Shown: positions 1,004-40,118, counted from the first letter of the stretch. The stretch: 64,000 nt of DNA from Solirubrobacteraceae bacterium (GCA_017882455.1 JADGPL010000001.1:124001-188000); one strand, 5' to 3'. Notes: a model not told the origin generated them from the letters alone. Program-made: numbers and translations.

Positions 1004-4000
1004 CTATTTCTTCTTCTTGCTCGTGGTCTTCTTCTTGGCGGCCTTCTTGGGGCCGTAGAGCTTGCGGGCCTTCTTTTCGCAGGCCGCACGCTTGCTCTTC
1101 TGCTTCATCTTCCTACAGACCTTGAGGGCTTTGGCGAGCTTCTGGGCCCGCGTCACCTTGAAGGAGGCCACGCCCTGGCATCCACTCGCCACGATGTTCG
1201 TGGTCTGTTTGATCACCGCGCCGCTCTGGGCGGTGATTTCGGTTGGCATCGTGAGGTTGGCGCCGCACAGGCTGTAGTTCTTGCTCGCCGGCACGTAGGC
1301 CGTGAGGGCCGAGTGCGGCCCGGTCGGCAAGAAGGTTTCGAAGGTCGTGAAGGGTGCGTCCGGCGCCGATTCGAAGCGCGAATAGGTGATGCCTTTTTTG
1401 ATGTCGGTCTTGCCGTCGAGGATCAGCGTGATGCCTTCACCCTGGAGCACGAACTCGACGTCCGGGAATGCCGCGCCGCCGTGGGAGACCAGGTAGGCGG
1501 GTCCCGTCAGCGGGCTCCCCAGCACCGGCGTGTGGATGACCGCGTAGCCGATGTTCGAGCCTTCGTCGCAAGTCGCAGGGTTGGCTTCGAAGACCGCCGC
1601 AACGCAGGCTTTCTGGATCGTGCTGAGGCGCGAGGGGAGCTGGAGCGGCAGGGTCAGGTCGACCTTGTGGATGTTCGCCTGACCGAGACCGCTCGATTCG
1701 ACCTTCACGCTGAGGCTCGCGCCGTTGGCTTTGCTCGCCTGCGCGCCGACGCTGGCGGTCAGCTTGGGCGTGAAGGGGAGGCTCGCGCAGTTGCCCACCT
1801 GGTAGGGGGTGGAAACGGCCGCGCTTGCCCCTTCATAGCCGCCCAGCGTGCCCGTGACGCTCGTGGGGGTGCAGTTGGTCGGGTTGAACTCGAAGCCTTC
1901 GCGGTCGACGGTCACGTTCAGTTCTTTGATCTGCGCGGGAGCGCCTTTGACGATCTGCGGCAGCGCGTCGCTCGTGATCGTGGCGGCCGCCGTGTTGGGA
2001 TCGATCGTGATGGTCGATCGGACCGGAATGTCACCGAGGTTGAACGGGCCGGCTTTGGCGTGCGTGACGGCGAGGATGCCGAACGGCGCACCCCTGTAGG
2101 GGCCGGTCAGATACACGTCACCTCCGAGCGAGACGGGCTTGCCGCCGAGCCCTGACAGCGCGGTCGAGTGCCCGATGTGGCTTTCGGGGCCGCATTCGTC
2201 TTTGGATGCCTGCGGTTCCGGACACGGCGTCACGGACGCGAGCATCGCGGCGGCGCCCGGAGGCAGGTGCATTTCGATCGTCTTCAGCGCCTGGTTGCCG
2301 TCCGGCCGTTTGATGTTCAACGTGAACGGGGCGAAGCTACCGGCCTGGACGTTGGTCGGTCCGGCTTCGAAGCTGGGGCCGAACGGAAGCGAGCTGCCGG
2401 GGCAGGCGCTGCCGTTGGGGCCCGAGGTGATCTGGAAGCTCGAGCCCCTTTCGGTCACGGTTTCTCCCGACCAGGTCGTGAAGTAGGCCCGGGCTCCGTA
2501 GCCGCCGCAGAACGCGGGCGTGGCCTGGGTGGCGCGTTCGGTGTTGAACAGGTGCAGGGTCAGCGTTTCGAAGGGCGTCTGGGGCGAGTTGGCGAACCTC
2601 GAGACGATGTGGCCGGTGTTCGGGTCGATCTTCACTTCGCCGGCGAGCTTGACCAGCACCTTGGAGTCTTCTTCTTCGGCCACCACGTAGAGCACCAGCG
2701 GCGACTGGAAGGGGTTGGTGTCCTGTTCGGCGAGGTAGACCGCGCCCTTCAGTTCCTTGGGCAGCAGCGGCGTCTTGATGTTGACGGTGCCGATCTTGGC
2801 GGCGTCGGGGCACGTGGCCGCGGCCGACGTGAAGTGCTGTTCGCCGAGCTCCGTTTCGAGCGCCGATCCGGTGTCGGAGCCGGCGCCGCCGAAGCCCGCC
2901 TGACCCACGCCGCATGTCTCGAGGCCGGTCGCCGCGCCAGCGGCTGTCTGCATGCCCACAGGCAGTTCGAGCGTCGTCGAGCGAATGTCGGCCTCGGCCC
3001 TGCCTTCGGCTTCGAGCGTGGTCTTCTGGGGCATGTTGACGTTGACCGTGAGGCCTGTGGGAGTGCTCGCCGCGTGCTTGTCGGGGCTGACTTCGATCGA
3101 CGGGTCGAAGGGCAGTTCGTCGCAGCCGGTGAGGGCGCTGGGAAATTCGTAGGGCACCTTGAATGAGCTGGGTGCCCCTTCTTCTTTGAGCTCGAGGGCG
3201 TTCCACGCTTCCCCCGTTGCGACCGTCTGCGGAGCGCGTTCACACGAGGTGGGCAGCATCAGGAACGGTGAGGGCTGCGAGATCCCCGACGGTTCGCACC
3301 CGAGGGGCGGCTTGAAGCCCGCCACGTAGCCGCCCCGGCCGAGACAAGCCCAGCCGCGGGCGTGATCGTGACGCGGGTCGCCCGGCACGCCCCAGAACGT
3401 GACCCTGCTTCCCAGAACCTGCACGGACTGGGAGGCGTAGTGGATGCTGACGTTCACTCCATAGTCTTCGCCGGTGCGAACCGATGTGTTGAGGACGATC
3501 GGGACGTGCGCCACCTCGAAGCCGAACTTGGCGGGCTCGCCCGGGGCGGGTACGAGGTTGAAGACCGGGACGATGTAGTCCTCGTAGAAGAGCGTGATCG
3601 GGTCGTTGATGGTGACCGCCGCCACCCCGATGGCGGTGTCGGGTGCACAGTTGTTGATGGATTTTTCGTCCCCGGCACCGAAGTCGACATCGGAGCACTG
3701 CGGCACCGCGTTGGGATTGCCCAGCAGGCCGGCCGGCAGCTTGAATTCGAGGTTCTTCTGCAGAGCCGGCGCCGACGGCAGCGGGTGTTCCTGGAAGGGA
3801 TACGATTCGTAGGTCTGGTTGAGATTGAAGGTCGTCGTCAGCTGGAAGGGGTGGCTGCCCGCCTGGGTGGCGGATTCGAATTCTTCGGTTTCGGGCGTGA
3901 GTTCATAGGATTCGACCCCGAACCTGGAGGGTTCACCGTTGACTTTGAGCTTCTGGTTGAGCGAGTCGCTCGACGGAGTCGCTCCACCGCCCGTCACCGT

Positions 4001-4480
4001 TACGTCGTTCTCGGGTTCCGACGCGACGGTGTTGTTCGTCTTGACGAGCATTTCGATTTCGAGCGCTTCGTATTCCGCGAGACCGCCGACGTAGGTGCAT
4101 TCGATCTGTTTGGGCGAGGCCAGAGTGCAGGTGAATCCAGCTTTGTTCAGTTCCGATCCGGCCGCCCCTGGGACGCTGCGACTCGTGGCTACTATCTTCG
4201 TGGCCGTCACTTCCCCGGTGAGGGTGTCTGTGATCGTGACCGGTTCTGCGACGGTGCTGTGCGCTTCGGCGTCGCCGATGTTGCTGGCCGTGACCATGAT
4301 CATGCCTTCGCCTTTGAGCGGCAGGTTCGTCGGCGCCGGACGCGATTCGAGCCTCCAGTGCGGTGCTGCGGGAGCCGCGGCAAGGGCCGGGGCAGCACCG
4401 AGGAGCGCCACCAGCAGCGTGCCCAGCGCCAGCCCTGTGCCGAGCGAACGGCTTCTTATCCGTTGCGGTCGGCTCATCAT
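1004..4480 (-). CDS. Giant secreted protein with LPxG/IG/TP repeats and lysine-rich tail
   Basis: 1158 residues. A signal peptide occupies residues ~1-35 (hydrophobic stretch ending APALAAA). Residues ~45-150 resemble a DUF11-type extracellular beta domain. The rest holds about four copies of a module: an LPxG-like strand, paired cysteines, an S/A-x-IG motif, TPLL/TPVL and a VYL segment, starting near residues 248, 505, 770 and 975. The last ~60 residues carry TRAQKLAKALKVCRK followed by an ACEKKARKLYGP segment and poly-lysine. The same tail ends the preceding gene, whose stop overlaps this start in ATGA, so the two form an operon. No enzymatic motif is visible; a cell-surface structural or adhesive role is inference. 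Confidence 0.75.
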   Translation of the reverse strand: MMSRPQRIRSRSLGTGLALGTLLVALLGAAPALAAAPAAPHWRLESRPAPTNLPLKGEGMIMVTASNIGDAEAHSTVAEPVTITDTLTGEVTATKIVATSRSVPGAAGSELNKAGFTCTLASPKQIECTYVGGLAEYEALEIEMLVKTNNTVASEPENDVTVTGGGATPSSDSLNQKLKVNGEPSRFGVESYELTPETEEFESATQAGSHPFQLTTTFNLNQTYESYPFQEHPLPSAPALQKNLEFKLPAGLLGNPNAVPQCSDVDFGAGDEKSINNCAPDTAIGVAAVTINDPITLFYEDYIVPVFNLVPAPGEPAKFGFEVAHVPIVLNTSVRTGEDYGVNVSIHYASQSVQVLGSRVTFWGVPGDPRHDHARGWACLGRGGYVAGFKPPLGCEPSGISQPSPFLMLPTSCERAPQTVATGEAWNALELKEEGAPSSFKVPYEFPSALTGCDELPFDPSIEVSPDKHAASTPTGLTVNVNMPQKTTLEAEGRAEADIRSTTLELPVGMQTAAGAATGLETCGVGQAGFGGAGSDTGSALETELGEQHFTSAAATCPDAAKIGTVNIKTPLLPKELKGAVYLAEQDTNPFQSPLVLYVVAEEEDSKVLVKLAGEVKIDPNTGHIVSRFANSPQTPFETLTLHLFNTERATQATPAFCGGYGARAYFTTWSGETVTERGSSFQITSGPNGSACPGSSLPFGPSFEAGPTNVQAGSFAPFTLNIKRPDGNQALKTIEMHLPPGAAAMLASVTPCPEPQASKDECGPESHIGHSTALSGLGGKPVSLGGDVYLTGPYRGAPFGILAVTHAKAGPFNLGDIPVRSTITIDPNTAAATITSDALPQIVKGAPAQIKELNVTVDREGFEFNPTNCTPTSVTGTLGGYEGASAAVSTPYQVGNCASLPFTPKLTASVGAQASKANGASLSVKVESSGLGQANIHKVDLTLPLQLPSRLSTIQKACVAAVFEANPATCDEGSNIGYAVIHTPVLGSPLTGPAYLVSHGGAAFPDVEFVLQGEGITLILDGKTDIKKGITYSRFESAPDAPFTTFETFLPTGPHSALTAYVPASKNYSLCGANLTMPTEITAQSGAVIKQTTNIVASGCQGVASFKVTRAQKLAKALKVCRKMKQKSKRAACEKKARKLYGPKKAAKKKTTSKKKK

Positions 4481-7400
4481 CCCCTGCTCCCGGTCGAGCT
4501 TTTCTTGGCGGTCGATTTGATCGGCCCATATTTCTTGCGTGCCTGCTTTTCACACGCAACGCGCTTGCTCTTGCTCTTGTTCTTCTTGCACGCCTTCAGC
4601 GCTTTCGCGAGCTTCTGGGCGCGCGTCAGCGGTTTCGTGGCTGGCTTGGCGGATTCTTTGCTGCCGAGGACCTGCACCTGCCCGAGGACGTTGCCGGGGC
4701 CCGAGAACGTCGCGGTCGCAGCCGCCGGGGAGGCGGGCGCAGAGTTGTAGGCGCCCTGGCACGCTTCGTTTTCACATGACTGCACCGGCACGGGCGGAGG
4801 CGGCGGACAGGGCGAGGACGCTTCGCAGATGTGAGCGTCATATACGTCGAAGTTGCCGTCCACGTCCTGGACCCCGAGTTTGGCCGCGGTGAGGAAGAAC
4901 ACGTCGTTGCCGCTCGCGCTGGCGTCGAGGAAGGCGGATTCGTGTTCGGAGGTGCCCGAGGAGATCAGCCCGACGCAGCCGCCTTCGCTGTGGCAGGCAC
5001 CCACTTCGCTTGGCTGGTACTCGTACACGTTCTCGATTCCGATCTGCTGTTCTTCCCCCTTCACCGTGACGGTCTTGGTGGCCTTCGCCAGCGGCACGAG
5101 CGCATCGGCGCTGTTGAAGAACAGCCGACCGCTGTTCGAGAGGTAATGCGACTGGTAGAGCGCGCGGTTTCGTTCGAGCGATGTCCATCCCGGAAGGCTC
5201 CCCGCCAGCCACCGGTCAGCCCCGAATGCTGGACCCCAGACCTGGGACCTGTCGACGACCAGGCCGAGACCTTCGCCGGACCCTCCTCCGTTGTTGGATC
5301 CAACGTCGAACACGCCCGTCGGTCGTGCGCCGGTCGGGTTGCACGAGGCGCAGATCAGATCCTGGTTGACAGCGTCATAGAGATAGACCTCCTCGTCGAG
5401 TCGTTCGCCGGGGGCCTTGCTGCTCACGTCTTCGTTGTCGTAGCCGGTCAGGCTCCTGTTCGACATGAACGCCAGGTATCGGCCGTTGGGTGAGACGCGC
5501 GCGGTCATGTAGCCGAGATCGCCCGGGATGCCGGCGCCACCCCAGTCGGGCCGATCTTGCGAGGAGAGGACGGCGAGGAGCGTGGTCGGCGACCAGGTGC
5601 TGCCGTTGAAGTGGCGCATGTAGAGGTTGCACGTCGTGGTGGCCGGTTGTACTTCTTCTTCGGTGGTGCAGCTACCCCGGGTCGCACCCGGCGTGAGCGC
5701 CCCGTTGGCCGCGAAGTAGACGTAGGAGCCGTCTTCGCTCGCGCCGATCACACCGCCGCTCACCGTATGGTCCACGAGCAGATACCCGCTACCGCCGTTC
5801 GGGCCTTCCGGAGTCAGGTCCCTGAGCGTGCCCGTCAGTGGCGAGCCAGGAGCGTTGCCGCCGCTCAGTTCGTAGACGTATAGATCGGCCTCTTCGTTCA
5901 CGCCGGCCCCGGCCTTCGAATCGGCGGTCAGCCGCTGCGGATCGGTGAAGAACACCTTCGACCCGTCGGCACTGGCCGTCTGGTAGATCGCGTTGGCCTT
6001 GCCTCCGCCCGCGGGCGCGCCGGGCTGAGGCAGGTCGAGCTGGAGCGTTTCCTGCGTCACGGTGTCCCGCACGTAAAGATGCGCCGCGCTCGTCCAGAAG
6101 ACGCGCGAACCGTCGTTCGAGATCGCGTGCCTGACGTCCTTGTTGGCGACGCCGCCCAGTCCCACAAGCCCTGGTTCGACGTGTGTTTCTCCCTGAGCCT
6201 TCGGGAGGACGCTGATGAGTTCGAGCGGCTGTCCGGGACCCGACCACTCGTACAGACCGGGGGCGGCCGTGAACGAGTCGAAGGCGACATGGCTCAGGTC
6301 GGGCGTGGCTCCCACGAATTCGAGGCCTTCAGAGAGACCGCCGCCAAACGGCACGCCACCTGGAGCATTCGCTTTGGTGACGAGCGCGAGGTAGCCCGGG
6401 TTTGCCGGACTCATGAGCGTACCGTTGTGCACGGCCGCGTTGTAGTTGCCTTCTTCGGAGGACGTCGGCTGCAGCGGCGCGTCGTCACGCAGGTAGATCG
6501 TCTTTTCCTGAGCTTCGCCCGTTGTCAGCGGGGGCGAGAGCGGCGGCTGTTCCAGCGTGCCGGTGTGCGAGTTCCCCGACGACGGTTCGACGAGCGAGAG
6601 CGCGAGGTTGGGAGAGAAGAACTGATACTCGGGGGCCGCTCCGCTCAGAATGCCAGTGCCGGCCCTGTTGGGCGTGACGATGTCTTTCGAGAGCCATCCC
6701 TGCGAGCCGCGAATCGAGAGGATCTGGGTCAGTTCCGGGCTGCGGTTGCCTTCGGGTTCGTCCTTGGCCGGCATCGGCCCGTCCGCCACGAAGCTGATCG
6801 AGCGGCCATCTTCGGAAGCTTGGATCACGCCGCCTTCTTTGGTGATCGCTTCTGGTTCCGCGCCGTCCTTTTCCGGCGGAGAGACCATTTCCCATCCGCG
6901 CCCGTCGGGAAGTCCGCTGAGCAGCACAAGGATCGCGAACGTCTGTTCGGAGCTCGTCACCGTCCCGAATTTGTTTTCCGCGATGACCCGATAGCGGTAG
7001 CTACCGGGGGGCAGGCTCTGCACTTCCACGCTCGCCTGCTGGTTGCCGAAGCCTGCGGCTATGTCGGCCGACGCCGTCTTGGTGCAGGGCGAGGGCGTGG
7101 CGGCGCAGCTGCCGGGTCCGTATTCGAAGTAGTAATGGGTGTCGGCGCCGCTCGGATCGATCGTGGCGTTGAGCTGGGTCGCATTCGTGGCCGGCGCTTT
7201 CGGCGCGAGGCTCTCGGCCGAGGTGGCTTCGATCGCCGGCGGCCCCGGCGCTTCGCGCGCGAACAGGTAGACCTTGTTGGACGCGGCGTCGGCTACGTAC
7301 ACCGAACCGTCGGCGGGATCCACCGCAACGGCGTCCCCTTCGGTCAGGCCGGGGGCGCTCAGGCGCTGGATCAGCGTTCCGCCGGCGCTGAACACCCCGA

Positions 7401-8319
7401 CCGTGTTGCGGGGTTTGCCGGCGACGGTCGTGGTGTTGTCCACGTACACGGAGTTGTCGGCGAGGTCTACGGCCACGGCGGTGCTGTTTTCGTTGTCGAG
7501 TTCCGCTTTCAGCACTTTCCCCGTGGTGCCGAGCTTCGCGACGACCGCGAGTTCGGTTCGTTCTTCCTCGGCCCATCGTTCGCGAGCGCTCGAGCCTTCG
7601 GTTGCTTCGGCGCCGGCATAGAAGTTGCCTTCGGAGTCGAGCGCGAAGCCCGGCCTCGGCTTGACCACTTCGGTCTGCACTTCACCCTGGAGTTCATTCG
7701 CCACGGCGTCGCTGAACTTCAGGATCGTGTGATTCGCCTGGTAGACGAGCAGCGTTCCCTGCGGGTCGATCGCCATGCCCTCGACCGTTTCGAGGGTTTC
7801 CTTTTCGCCTTCGCTCAGGAATTTGTGAATTTCGCCGAGCGGAGCGCCTTCGGCGCTGAACTTGTAGATGTACTTGCCGTTGTTGCCGACGACATACACG
7901 TCGCCTTTGGAGGGATCTCCGGCTTCCGTCGAGTTGTCCACGGCGATAGCCCCGACTCTCGCGACGGTGAATTCGGACACGAATTCCTCGTTCGTGATTT
8001 CGCCTTCTGTGCCGCGCACGGGCTTGAACTCCTCGACCCGTTTGTTTTTGTGGTCGGCCACATAGACGTTGCCGGTGGAATCGTTCACGGCCACCCCGAC
8101 CGGTTCCGATAGCTGCCCGGCGCCTTTGCCGGTTCCGCCGAAGGCGAAGCTGAAGGTGTGCCCTCTCTGGCTCAGCGCCTGCGCTGGGACACTCCACACC
8201 AGCAAGGCCAGGATGAGAGCCACGAAGAACGCAAACGGGCTCAGCGCCTGTCGGACGACACCCGCGCGACCAGCATCGCTGTCAACCCGCCCTTGACCCC
8301 TCATCCCCTGCGCGTACAT
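4477..8319 (-). CDS. Giant secreted beta-propeller protein (NHL and TolB/PD40-like repeats)
   Basis: 1280 residues. The N-terminal hydrophobic segment (~residues 27-49, ending VPAQA) is a signal peptide or anchor. Residues ~55-350 contain NHL-type blades (GVAVNDSTGNVYVAD and similar repeats). Residues ~360-465 look like a fibronectin-III-like sandwich (THYYFEYGP ... YRYRVIAENKFG). From ~480 to ~1160 follow TolB/PD40-type propeller repeats (GRSISFVADG, SHVAFDS, SRVFWTSA, SKVFFTDP, SYVYFAANG, RYLAFMSNR). The C-terminus repeats the TRAQKLAKALKACKK ... ACEKQARKKYGP tail of the downstream gene. ATG at 8319 is used here; an internal ATG at 8304 is possible. Function is unknown; a surface ligand-binding or scaffold role is inferred. 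Confidence 0.75.
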   Translation of the reverse strand: MYAQGMRGQGRVDSDAGRAGVVRQALSPFAFFVALILALLVWSVPAQALSQRGHTFSFAFGGTGKGAGQLSEPVGVAVNDSTGNVYVADHKNKRVEEFKPVRGTEGEITNEEFVSEFTVARVGAIAVDNSTEAGDPSKGDVYVVGNNGKYIYKFSAEGAPLGEIHKFLSEGEKETLETVEGMAIDPQGTLLVYQANHTILKFSDAVANELQGEVQTEVVKPRPGFALDSEGNFYAGAEATEGSSARERWAEEERTELAVVAKLGTTGKVLKAELDNENSTAVAVDLADNSVYVDNTTTVAGKPRNTVGVFSAGGTLIQRLSAPGLTEGDAVAVDPADGSVYVADAASNKVYLFAREAPGPPAIEATSAESLAPKAPATNATQLNATIDPSGADTHYYFEYGPGSCAATPSPCTKTASADIAAGFGNQQASVEVQSLPPGSYRYRVIAENKFGTVTSSEQTFAILVLLSGLPDGRGWEMVSPPEKDGAEPEAITKEGGVIQASEDGRSISFVADGPMPAKDEPEGNRSPELTQILSIRGSQGWLSKDIVTPNRAGTGILSGAAPEYQFFSPNLALSLVEPSSGNSHTGTLEQPPLSPPLTTGEAQEKTIYLRDDAPLQPTSSEEGNYNAAVHNGTLMSPANPGYLALVTKANAPGGVPFGGGLSEGLEFVGATPDLSHVAFDSFTAAPGLYEWSGPGQPLELISVLPKAQGETHVEPGLVGLGGVANKDVRHAISNDGSRVFWTSAAHLYVRDTVTQETLQLDLPQPGAPAGGGKANAIYQTASADGSKVFFTDPQRLTADSKAGAGVNEEADLYVYELSGGNAPGSPLTGTLRDLTPEGPNGGSGYLLVDHTVSGGVIGASEDGSYVYFAANGALTPGATRGSCTTEEEVQPATTTCNLYMRHFNGSTWSPTTLLAVLSSQDRPDWGGAGIPGDLGYMTARVSPNGRYLAFMSNRSLTGYDNEDVSSKAPGERLDEEVYLYDAVNQDLICASCNPTGARPTGVFDVGSNNGGGSGEGLGLVVDRSQVWGPAFGADRWLAGSLPGWTSLERNRALYQSHYLSNSGRLFFNSADALVPLAKATKTVTVKGEEQQIGIENVYEYQPSEVGACHSEGGCVGLISSGTSEHESAFLDASASGNDVFFLTAAKLGVQDVDGNFDVYDAHICEASSPCPPPPPVPVQSCENEACQGAYNSAPASPAAATATFSGPGNVLGQVQVLGSKESAKPATKPLTRAQKLAKALKACKKNKSKSKRVACEKQARKKYGPIKSTAKKSSTGSRG

Positions 8320-37943: not shown

Positions 37944-38063
37944 CGCGCCCGAGGTGCCGCGTGTGCTTCTCTATGTGCCTGTATCGCGCCCGGCTGGCCG
38001 CAGCTACCGGCGCCAACCGCTGCGATGTCGTCGATCCCCCACCCCACTCCCAGGAGGCCGTTC

Positions 38064-40118
38064 GTGCTCTCAGGTCGTGCCCGCCTCACGCTGCTGCTGA
38101 TCGCTGCCTCGCTGGTGCTCACAGGAGCGCTCGCGTCGAGCGCCGACGCGGAAGTCACCGCCTCGCAGATCACCTCGCCGGCCGATCCGACGCTGCCGCC
38201 GCTGGTCAAACAGCCGCTGAAAGCGACGAGCAGCCAGACGCTGACCGTGAGCGGGACCACCACGACGAACGACGCGAACGCCTCCGACACGGTGGAACTG
38301 GGGTGCTTCTACACGGGCGTCGAAGGAGCCAAGAAGGAGACCGTCCTCAAGAAGGTGAACGGCGAAGCCCTCACGATCCCGGTGAGCACCTTGGACGGGT
38401 CGTTCACGACCTCGGAAGCTGCGCTTGAAGGCCTGCTGCACCAACAGCCGTGCATGTTGCGGGCCGTTCCCCCAGCGACCCCGGAAACAGCGTCGGTGAC
38501 GGCATTCGCCGGTCCGCGGCTCGGCGACGCCGGGATTGCGACCGTGGGCACCGAAGCGAGCAAGCTCACGGACGACGAACTGTCAACCACGACCTTGCAG
38601 GGCTACTGGCTATGGAAGTCCGCAGGCAGTTGCGGACCATCCAGCAATGTGTTCGAACCGTCCAGCTTCCAAAGGGCCGTGCCGCCGATCTTCCATTGCG
38701 CCGCCACCCTGTCCGAGACGACCGAATTGAAAGAACCGTCGATCGTCGTAGACGCCCACAACGGCTACGCCGTGGCCGCAGCATCCACCATCAACGCGGG
38801 CGCTGTCGGGCAGCCGTTCCTGGAGCTCGGGGCTCCAAGCTTCAACGAAGCTACCGGCGTCCTCACACAGACCGAGACCGAGCCCATCGTCCACTGTGAG
38901 AAGGCCGGGGGCGAACCTGTGGACGTGCCCGAACCGACCTCCGCCGAATGCGTCCAGTTCGCCTCCACGGGCGTGGAGCTCGTCCGCACAGTGACGACCG
39001 GCGAAGGTGGTCTGCAGGCAACGGTGACCGACGAACTCAAGAGCACCGAAGCGAGCGGCGCTCACACGATCACCCTGCGCTACCGCGAGCAGCAGGGCGG
39101 CATTGAACCCAGCTATAAGTTCCCGGGCGAATCGGCGTTCAAGCGGTACAAAGCCACCGAATCTGCGCCCACCGGGTCATCGGCTCCCGAGACCGTGTAC
39201 TTCCAGGCGAGCGAAGAATCGGCGGAACCGGAAAGCCCGCATGAAAACCCTCGGGGGGCGATCACCCTGTCGGCAACCCCGACCGCCGTCAAGTTCGCGG
39301 GCCCCAACGCCTTCGAACTCGTCTACTCCGGACAAACAGTCCCCGCCTCGGGCGCGTTGACCCTCACCCAGGCGCTCTCGCAGACCCGAGCCGCGGAACC
39401 ACCAACGCTGAGCGTCGCCTCGCCGGTCTCCGGCACGACGGTGTCCACTTCAACGATCAACGTCTCCGGGAGCGCCTCCGGCAACTTTGGGATCGCCTCC
39501 TTGAGTGTGAACGGCTCCGCCGTCACCGTCGCCAACGACGGCACCTGGTCCACGAGCGTTCCGCTGAGCAGCGGCGCCAACACCATCTCGGCTGTGGCGA
39601 CGGACAACGCCGGCAAGACCACATCGCGCTCCATCACCGTCACCTACACCCCCCCGGTCACCGAAACCCCGGCCGGCAAAACGCCCCCGGTGGAAACACC
39701 GCCGAGCTCGACGCCGGTGCGCGCACGCGCCTCGCTCTCGGGCAAGGTCACCGGCACCGGCGGCAAAGTGGCCTACACCCTGGCCTGCGTTGGCACGGCG
39801 GGGGAGCGCTGCAACGTGACGGTGACGCTGTACACCGTCGAGAGGCTGCGCGCTGGGAAGCTCCTCGGCCTGACCGCGAGCCAGAAGACCCGCACCAAGC
39901 GGATCGTCCTCGCCTCGGGCACGCTGTCGATCCCGGCGGGGCTGCGCGTGAACGTGTCGGTGAAGCTGGACGCCACCGGGCGCAAGCTGCTGGCCCGCTT
40001 CGGCAAGATCCCCGCCCGCCTCAGCACGATCCTGAGCGCGAGCGCGGGAGCGCCCGCGGAAACTGTGGTCGCGCAGAACGTGACGATCACGCCCGTCAAG
40101 AAGCCCAAGAAGAAGTAG
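38064..40118 (+). CDS. Secreted protein with bacterial Ig-like domain
   Basis: 684 residues from GTG 38064, chosen because AGGAGG ends 6 nt upstream and a clean signal peptide follows (RARLTLLLIAASLVLTG ... ADA); ATG 38025 would add 13 odd residues. Residues ~30-440 are Thr/Ser/Glu-rich beta-type sequence with six or so cysteines. Residues ~443-530 form an Ig-like domain (SGSASGNFGIASLSVNG, SSGANTISAVATDNAGKT), then a Pro/Thr linker and a final all-beta domain (KVAYTLACVG ... NVTVTLYTV). The C-terminus is basic (PVKKPKKK). It interrupts the bio cluster; no link to biotin is visible. Confidence 0.75.
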   Translation: MLSGRARLTLLLIAASLVLTGALASSADAEVTASQITSPADPTLPPLVKQPLKATSSQTLTVSGTTTTNDANASDTVELGCFYTGVEGAKKETVLKKVNGEALTIPVSTLDGSFTTSEAALEGLLHQQPCMLRAVPPATPETASVTAFAGPRLGDAGIATVGTEASKLTDDELSTTTLQGYWLWKSAGSCGPSSNVFEPSSFQRAVPPIFHCAATLSETTELKEPSIVVDAHNGYAVAAASTINAGAVGQPFLELGAPSFNEATGVLTQTETEPIVHCEKAGGEPVDVPEPTSAECVQFASTGVELVRTVTTGEGGLQATVTDELKSTEASGAHTITLRYREQQGGIEPSYKFPGESAFKRYKATESAPTGSSAPETVYFQASEESAEPESPHENPRGAITLSATPTAVKFAGPNAFELVYSGQTVPASGALTLTQALSQTRAAEPPTLSVASPVSGTTVSTSTINVSGSASGNFGIASLSVNGSAVTVANDGTWSTSVPLSSGANTISAVATDNAGKTTSRSITVTYTPPVTETPAGKTPPVETPPSSTPVRARASLSGKVTGTGGKVAYTLACVGTAGERCNVTVTLYTVERLRAGKLLGLTASQKTRTKRIVLASGTLSIPAGLRVNVSVKLDATGRKLLARFGKIPARLSTILSASAGAPAETVVAQNVTITPVKKPKKK

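What the first reader, a model, noticed from the sequence alone, without database searches (positions are those of the whole stretch)
1004..8319. Two giant secreted proteins share a cysteine-containing lysine-rich C-terminal tail
Both end with TRAQKLAKALK, a Cys, a K-S-K-R segment, ACEK-ARK-YGP and then lysine runs, although their bodies are unrelated (repeat modules versus beta-propellers). A shared tail on different exported bodies suggests a sorting, anchoring or polymer-binding signal not described to my knowledge. The two conserved cysteines could form a disulfide or a covalent link.
Basis: partly seen in the sequence, partly recalled or inferred. Interest (0 to 1): 0.65.

Follow-up and report, generated by a model that had tools for sequence, protein, structure and literature searches.

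The report
Basic two-cysteine hairpin on secreted proteins
Two neighbouring giant secreted proteins of a soil actinobacterium end in the same small, strongly positively charged two-cysteine helical hairpin, an uncatalogued module that this genus has placed on dozens of exported proteins, most likely to hold them on negatively charged polymers outside the cell rather than to sort or process them.

Summary
p2 (4477-8319, minus) and p1 (1004-4480, minus), exported proteins with unrelated bodies in one operon, share a C-terminal tail far above chance (z about 18 against shuffles). No Pfam, NCBIfam or PDB sequence matches it. AlphaFold2 predicts an alpha-hairpin with one Cys per helix. It is an expanded module of one Solirubrobacterales genus (19 of 24 genomes, up to 20 copies); no match outside the order among 396 genomes sampled across the phylum. 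Of 70 full-length carriers, 69 hold it within 30 residues of the stop, nearly all with signal peptides. It is not a C-terminal sorting signal: it also sits at mature N-termini (cupredoxins), in tandem, and internally in gene fusions; there is no LPXTG, no transmembrane segment, and presence does not track sortase. Homologous bodies carry other ends instead: plain Lys/Arg runs, basic Ig-like domains, or a different two-Cys basic tail in a sister genus. The common factor is positive charge. Best explanation: a disulfide-stapled cationic module that retains giant exported proteins on anionic envelope or matrix polymers. Export and module status are well supported by sequence; the disulfide and the polymer binding are inferred and untested.

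The parts
4477..8319 (-). p2: 1280-aa exported protein, NHL/PD40 beta-propeller body, ending in the hairpin tail
   Evidence: ORF; Pfam NHL and PD40; body cluster of 60 propeller/FN3 relatives
8176..8319 (-). p2 N-terminus with Sec-type signal peptide (hydrophobic core FAFFVALILALLVW, probable cleavage after AQA)
   Evidence: sequence; hydrophobicity 3.22; heuristic, no dedicated predictor
4510..4632 (-). p2 hairpin module
   Evidence: profile match
4585..4623 (-). p2 helix 1 of the hairpin (RAQKLAKALKACK)
   Evidence: AlphaFold2, 10-sequence alignment, pLDDT about 94-96
4528..4572 (-). p2 helix 2 of the hairpin (KSKRVACEKQARKKY)
   Evidence: AlphaFold2
4588..4590 (-). p2 first conserved Cys codon
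   Evidence: sequence; invariant in alignments A2, A4 and A7
4552..4554 (-). p2 second conserved Cys codon
   Evidence: sequence; invariant in alignments A2, A4 and A7
4480..4527 (-). p2 basic, probably disordered end after the hairpin
   Evidence: pLDDT about 59-67
1004..4480 (-). p1: 1158-aa exported protein, beta-rich body without Pfam match, ending in the hairpin tail; start overlaps the p2 stop by 4 nt
   Evidence: large paralogous family in the order
4373..4480 (-). p1 N-terminus with Sec-type signal peptide (GLALGTLLVALLGAAPALA)
   Evidence: sequence; hydrophobicity 2.38
1037..1159 (-). p1 hairpin module; its Cys codons are at 1115-1117 and 1079-1081
   Evidence: profile match; two helices at residues 1111-1123 and 1128-1142 also in the otherwise poor full-length model
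1007..1036 (-). p1 lysine-rich end after the hairpin
   Evidence: sequence; net charge of the last 30 residues +14

Best explanation
The tail is a small exported module, not a sorting signal: two short antiparallel alpha-helices, each carrying one cysteine that can be joined by a disulfide, with net charge about +14 and usually followed by a flexible Lys/Arg-rich end. After Sec export the body (propeller, FN3-like, p1-type beta-rich, cupredoxin) does its own work, and the cationic hairpin holds it by electrostatic, avidity-type binding to anionic polymers outside the cell (wall glycopolymers, exopolysaccharide or extracellular DNA), so that the giant proteins are not lost by diffusion. Well supported from sequence: sharing of the module, export of carriers by signal-peptide heuristics, predicted hairpin, conserved Cys, position independence, replacement by other basic ends. 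Inferred: the disulfide, polymer binding, retention.
For: Predicted alpha-hairpin, helices 18-30 and 35-49, pLDDT about 94-96. Hairpin net charge +11 to +17, mean +14.1, with about one acidic residue. Both Cys in all 97 hairpins, spacing 10-17, at mean pairwise identity of only 48%. VKOR in 21 of 24 genus genomes. 69 of 70 full-length genus carriers have it within 30 residues of the stop; 62 of 70 pass a strict signal-peptide rule against 9 of 36 control genes, several of which are membrane or secreted proteins. Swapping of ends: p1-family bodies stop at a common GC landmark and then carry the hairpin (10), an Ig-like basic domain (about 10-13) or a plain Lys/Arg run (about 20-25), mean net charges +21, +18 and +12; G184:C20, 71% identical to p1, has the Ig-like end. 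p2-type propellers of sister genera carry CxxGxxxxxGKCVKK-type or plain basic ends. The module also occurs at N-termini and in tandem, as a binding module would.
Against: No binding partner is shown and no protein data exist. The helices are not significantly amphipathic, so how the hairpin packs apart from the Cys is unclear. A few p1-family members end in only TRRR or AKKRK, so a long basic tail is not obligatory. Strong conservation of L, A, R, Y and the Cys pair suggests something more specific than charge alone. The nearest tail has the same body class in 72% of cases (44% expected), so most tails were inherited with their bodies rather than exchanged.
Confidence: 0.52

Rival explanations
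1. C-terminal sorting or processing signal: a dedicated enzyme recognises the tail, cleaves it and attaches the protein to the surface.
For: 69 of 70 full-length genus carriers have it at the C-terminus and nearly all look exported; it is shared by unrelated bodies.
Against: Also found at mature N-termini, in tandem, and internally in gene fusions. No transmembrane segment and no LPXTG. No NCBIfam C-terminal signal model matches. Presence does not track sortase. Bodies of the same family occur with quite different ends.
Confidence: 0.1
2. Assembly module: hairpins of operon partners pair with each other (helical bundle or intermolecular disulfide) and hold propeller and p1-type proteins in one complex.
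For: Several tandem gene pairs in which both partners carry the module, with overlapping or abutting genes; two fused ORFs L101 and L111 suggest the partners belong together.
Against: Very high like charge on both hairpins disfavours pairing without a counter-ion. In L055 and L062 the hairpin gene's neighbour has only a plain basic end. Many carriers are single in the fetched stretch.
Confidence: 0.18
3. Nucleic-acid or membrane-active module: the hairpin acts on DNA or on membranes of other cells, like cationic plant alpha-hairpinins.
For: Foldseek's list is rich in alpha-hairpinins (7lxk, 7uv4, 6o3q, 2nb2, 7lvf, 5lm0); cationic hairpin; a paper in the library studies DNA binding of the maize hairpinin MBP-1 (PMC6273665, title and start of abstract only).
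Against: All Foldseek E-values are above 1. The module is fused to bodies of up to about 1600 residues, and no release site was found. Little amphipathicity.
Confidence: 0.1
4. No function: a lysine-rich C-terminal extension spread by duplication of paralogous genes and tolerated.
For: Carriers are heavily duplicated paralogues; other basic ends occur on the same bodies.
Against: The Cys pair and the Leu, Ala, Arg and Tyr positions stay nearly fixed at 48% mean identity; spread over several unrelated bodies including cupredoxins.
Confidence: 0.07

Closest known systems
Plant alpha-hairpinins (C-X3-C-Xn-C-X3-C peptides, vicilin-buried peptides)
   Same: Two antiparallel short helices, cationic, inner Cys spacing within the X4-20 range of that family; they recur among the Foldseek hits.
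   Different: One Cys per helix instead of two or more, no sequence relation found, bacterial, fused to giant exported proteins; Foldseek E-values above 1.
Lysine-rich C-terminal domain of mycobacterial HBHA
   Same: Basic, lysine-rich C-terminal domain of a surface protein that binds sulfated polysaccharide (PMC3293801).
   Different: HBHA's domain is a Lys-rich repeat; no two-Cys hairpin is described in what I read; body unrelated. The likeness is to p1's lysine-rich end in particular.
LPXTG/sortase and PEP-CTERM-type C-terminal sorting signals
   Same: C-terminal tag shared by unrelated exported bodies, with positive charges.
   Different: No motif, no transmembrane helix, not restricted to the C-terminus, and presence independent of sortase.
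CxxGxxxxxGKCVKK basic tail on homologous propellers of a sister genus (f2:g34)
   Same: Same place on the same kind of body, two Cys, followed by a Lys/His run.
   Different: Different sequence and a Gly-containing spacing that does not look helical; lineage-restricted.

Membership tests
Sortase (LPXTG) substrate | LPXTG-like motif near the C-terminus | tested here: not met
   No LPxT[GA] in the last 80 residues of 70 carriers
Sortase (LPXTG) substrate | hydrophobic membrane-spanning segment before the basic end | tested here: not met
   Maximum 19-residue hydropathy in the last 80 residues: mean 0.45, highest 1.55
Sortase (LPXTG) substrate | cognate sortase in the genome | tested here: not met
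   No PF04203 hit in tail-rich G168, G170, G171, G173 or in G014; present in G035, G050, G177 and G186 without tail. G168 and G170 are only 72-74% complete; G171, G173 and G014 are 91-94%
PEP-CTERM, GlyGly-CTERM and similar C-terminal signals | match to a curated C-terminal signal model | tested here: not met
   No such NCBIfam match for p1, p2 or six tails at E 1; p2's body gives a sub-threshold hit to ScyF only
Any C-terminal-only signal | always at the C-terminus | tested here: not met
   N-terminal in L073 and in f2:g26 cupredoxins; internal in fused L101, L111
Plant alpha-hairpinin | helix-loop-helix fold | tested here: met
   AlphaFold2 helices 18-30 and 35-49; predicted, not solved
Plant alpha-hairpinin | four Cys as CX3C-Xn-CX3C with two disulfides (PMC11591084) | tested here: not met
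   Only one Cys per helix in p1, p2 and in the aligned tails
HBHA-like Lys-rich adhesin domain | binds sulfated or anionic polysaccharide | not testable with these tools
   Needs a binding assay
HBHA-like Lys-rich adhesin domain | exported or surface-displayed protein with basic C-terminus | tested here: met
   Signal peptides by heuristic and strongly charged C-termini
Disulfide-bonded exported hairpin | two Cys joined by a disulfide | tested here: inconclusive
   Invariant Cys pair and VKOR in 21 of 24 genus genomes are consistent; no distance or redox measurement

The most novel reading that the evidence does not exclude
One soil actinobacterial genus runs a sortase-independent display system: an exchangeable set of cationic end modules (a two-Cys alpha-hairpin, another two-Cys tail in a sister genus, basic Ig-like domains, plain Lys/Arg runs) sits on dozens of giant propeller and p1-type proteins and holds them reversibly on an anionic extracellular polymer.
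Probability: 0.38. Interest if true: 0.6.

Novelty: new variant of a known kind. Interest (0 to 1): 0.45.

Why it matters
The module matches nothing in Pfam or NCBIfam, so carriers can be annotated by body only or as hypothetical proteins. It marks dozens of giant exported proteins in a soil genus known here only from MAG records, and suggests that Solirubrobacterales keep large proteins near the cell through interchangeable cationic ends rather than sortase. A 40-residue, one-disulfide cationic hairpin would also be an easily tested surface-retention tag.

Tried and rejected
Curated families: Pfam and NCBIfam gave nothing credible for the tail. PDB sequences: nothing at E 1. Composition artefact: rejected by the shuffle test for the core, but not for the final lysine run. 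Sortase dependence: rejected. Wide distribution in Actinobacteriota: rejected at the sensitivity used. The first signal-peptide rule was unspecific (18 of 36 controls passed) and was replaced. Amphipathic helices: not significant. The full-length p1 model has low confidence (pLDDT 42.5) and was not used for a fold search. The literature searches found nothing describing this tail; the library lacks most subscription papers.

Full report
What is there. On the minus strand, p2 (4477-8319, 1280 aa) and p1 (1004-4480, 1158 aa) are consecutive genes; p1's start overlaps p2's stop by four bases. p2 has NHL and PD40 propeller matches; p1 has none. Both begin with Sec-type signal peptides. Their bodies do not cluster together by BLAST, yet their last 50 residues align with a score of 161 against 42.3 +/- 6.5 for shuffles. 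The shared part is the 36-residue core; the final lysine-rich run by itself is only a likeness of composition.

Who carries it. The window lies in a 3.3-Mb genome with six clear copies and a probable seventh, weak and N-terminal, in L023. In the order, 19 of 24 genomes of the same genus have matches at E 0.01, one of them (G181) only a weak one, and up to 20 per genome. With a 40-row profile, 21 of 349 genomes of the class have matches at E 0.001, and of 396 genomes sampled across the phylum only two, both of the same order. In the class sample the only match outside the order (G432) is weak and lies in a 100-residue open frame with no sign of being a real gene. Named public records are Solirubrobacterales MAGs, one labelled palsa_744; the identity of the genus is otherwise not given. 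Homologues outside the genus are weaker and lie in a few genomes of the same family and in genus g26 of a sister family.

Anatomy. In 70 full-length genus carriers, 69 have the module within 30 residues of the stop. Bodies include propellers and FN3-like proteins (a linked cluster of 60), the p1 family, a family with an ITDEVGEKAH motif, a small secreted family, and a cupredoxin. A strict signal-peptide rule passes 62 of 70 carriers and 9 of 36 control genes, several of those being membrane or secreted proteins; at least two of the eight failures (L065, L105) show obvious signal peptides by eye, and several others look like frames cut by assembly or frameshift, which was not tested. Both Cys are present in all 97 hairpins, 10 to 17 residues apart, most often 11. 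AlphaFold2 on a ten-sequence alignment gives two helices with pLDDT about 94-96; the low-confidence model of the whole of p1 shows the same two helices.

Why it is not a C-terminal sorting signal. The module lies between the signal peptide and the body in L073 and in several cupredoxins of genus g26 (L125, L132, L151, L152, L156, L157), probably also in L023 of the own genome; it is doubled at the C-terminus in L106, L114, L122, L133 and L154; and it lies internally in L101 and L111, where an upstream gene reads on into another body. A cupredoxin of the window's genus carries it at the C-terminus (L067), those of g26 at the N-terminus: the same kind of partner, opposite ends. There is no LPXTG and no transmembrane segment. 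Sortase is missing from genomes with many tails and present in genomes with none.

What replaces it. p1-family bodies end at a common GC landmark. After it come the hairpin (10 cases), a basic Ig-like domain (about 10-13) or a plain Lys/Arg run (about 20-25, the automatic classes being slightly mixed), with mean net charges of +21, +18 and +12; a few distant relatives end in only four or five mostly basic residues. G184:C20, 71% identical to p1 in the body, has the Ig-like end. p2-type propellers of sister genera end in CxxGxxxxxGKCVKK-type or plain basic tails, and that other tail is itself lineage-restricted. Nearest tails share the body class in 72% of cases against 44% expected, so inheritance with the body is the rule and exchange the exception.

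How it most likely works. Sequence evidence: an exported, strongly cationic, position-independent module, replaceable by other cationic ends. Inference: the two Cys form a disulfide that staples the hairpin (VKOR is present in 21 of 24 genomes), and the module retains the body on anionic polymers outside the cell. Overall confidence 0.52; the hairpin and module status alone I would put at about 0.85.

Comparison with what is known. It resembles plant alpha-hairpinins in predicted shape (they recur in the Foldseek list, but at E above 1) and fails their defining four-Cys motif. [quoted passage not shown] It is not a sortase or PEP-CTERM-type substrate. I call it a new variant of a known kind: a cationic retention module with an undescribed two-Cys helical form.

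Noticed in passing
L226, L229, L232, L236, L237 (C-termini): Propellers homologous to p2 in sister genera end in a different two-Cys basic tail, CxxGxxxxxGKCVKK followed by Lys/His runs, apparently lineage-restricted.
   Followed up: partly
window 1004-4480 and its relatives: The p1 body belongs to a very large paralogous exported family in Solirubrobacterales (84 of 232 genomes, up to 15 or more copies each) with no Pfam model.
   Followed up: partly
L125, L132, L151, L152, L156, L157: Small cupredoxins in genus g26 of a sister family carry the hairpin between signal peptide and copper domain, sometimes as tandem genes.
   Followed up: partly
L101, L111: Open frames in which a tail-bearing gene reads on into the next exported body, suggesting fusion of tandem partners (or an assembly error).
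   Followed up: no
window 38025-40118, + strand: Another exported-looking protein (697 aa) with a lysine-rich end (VKKPKKK) but no hairpin.
   Followed up: no
L179: A protein 71% identical to p1 in the body carries a basic Ig-like domain in place of the hairpin, a clean case of end replacement.
   Followed up: yes
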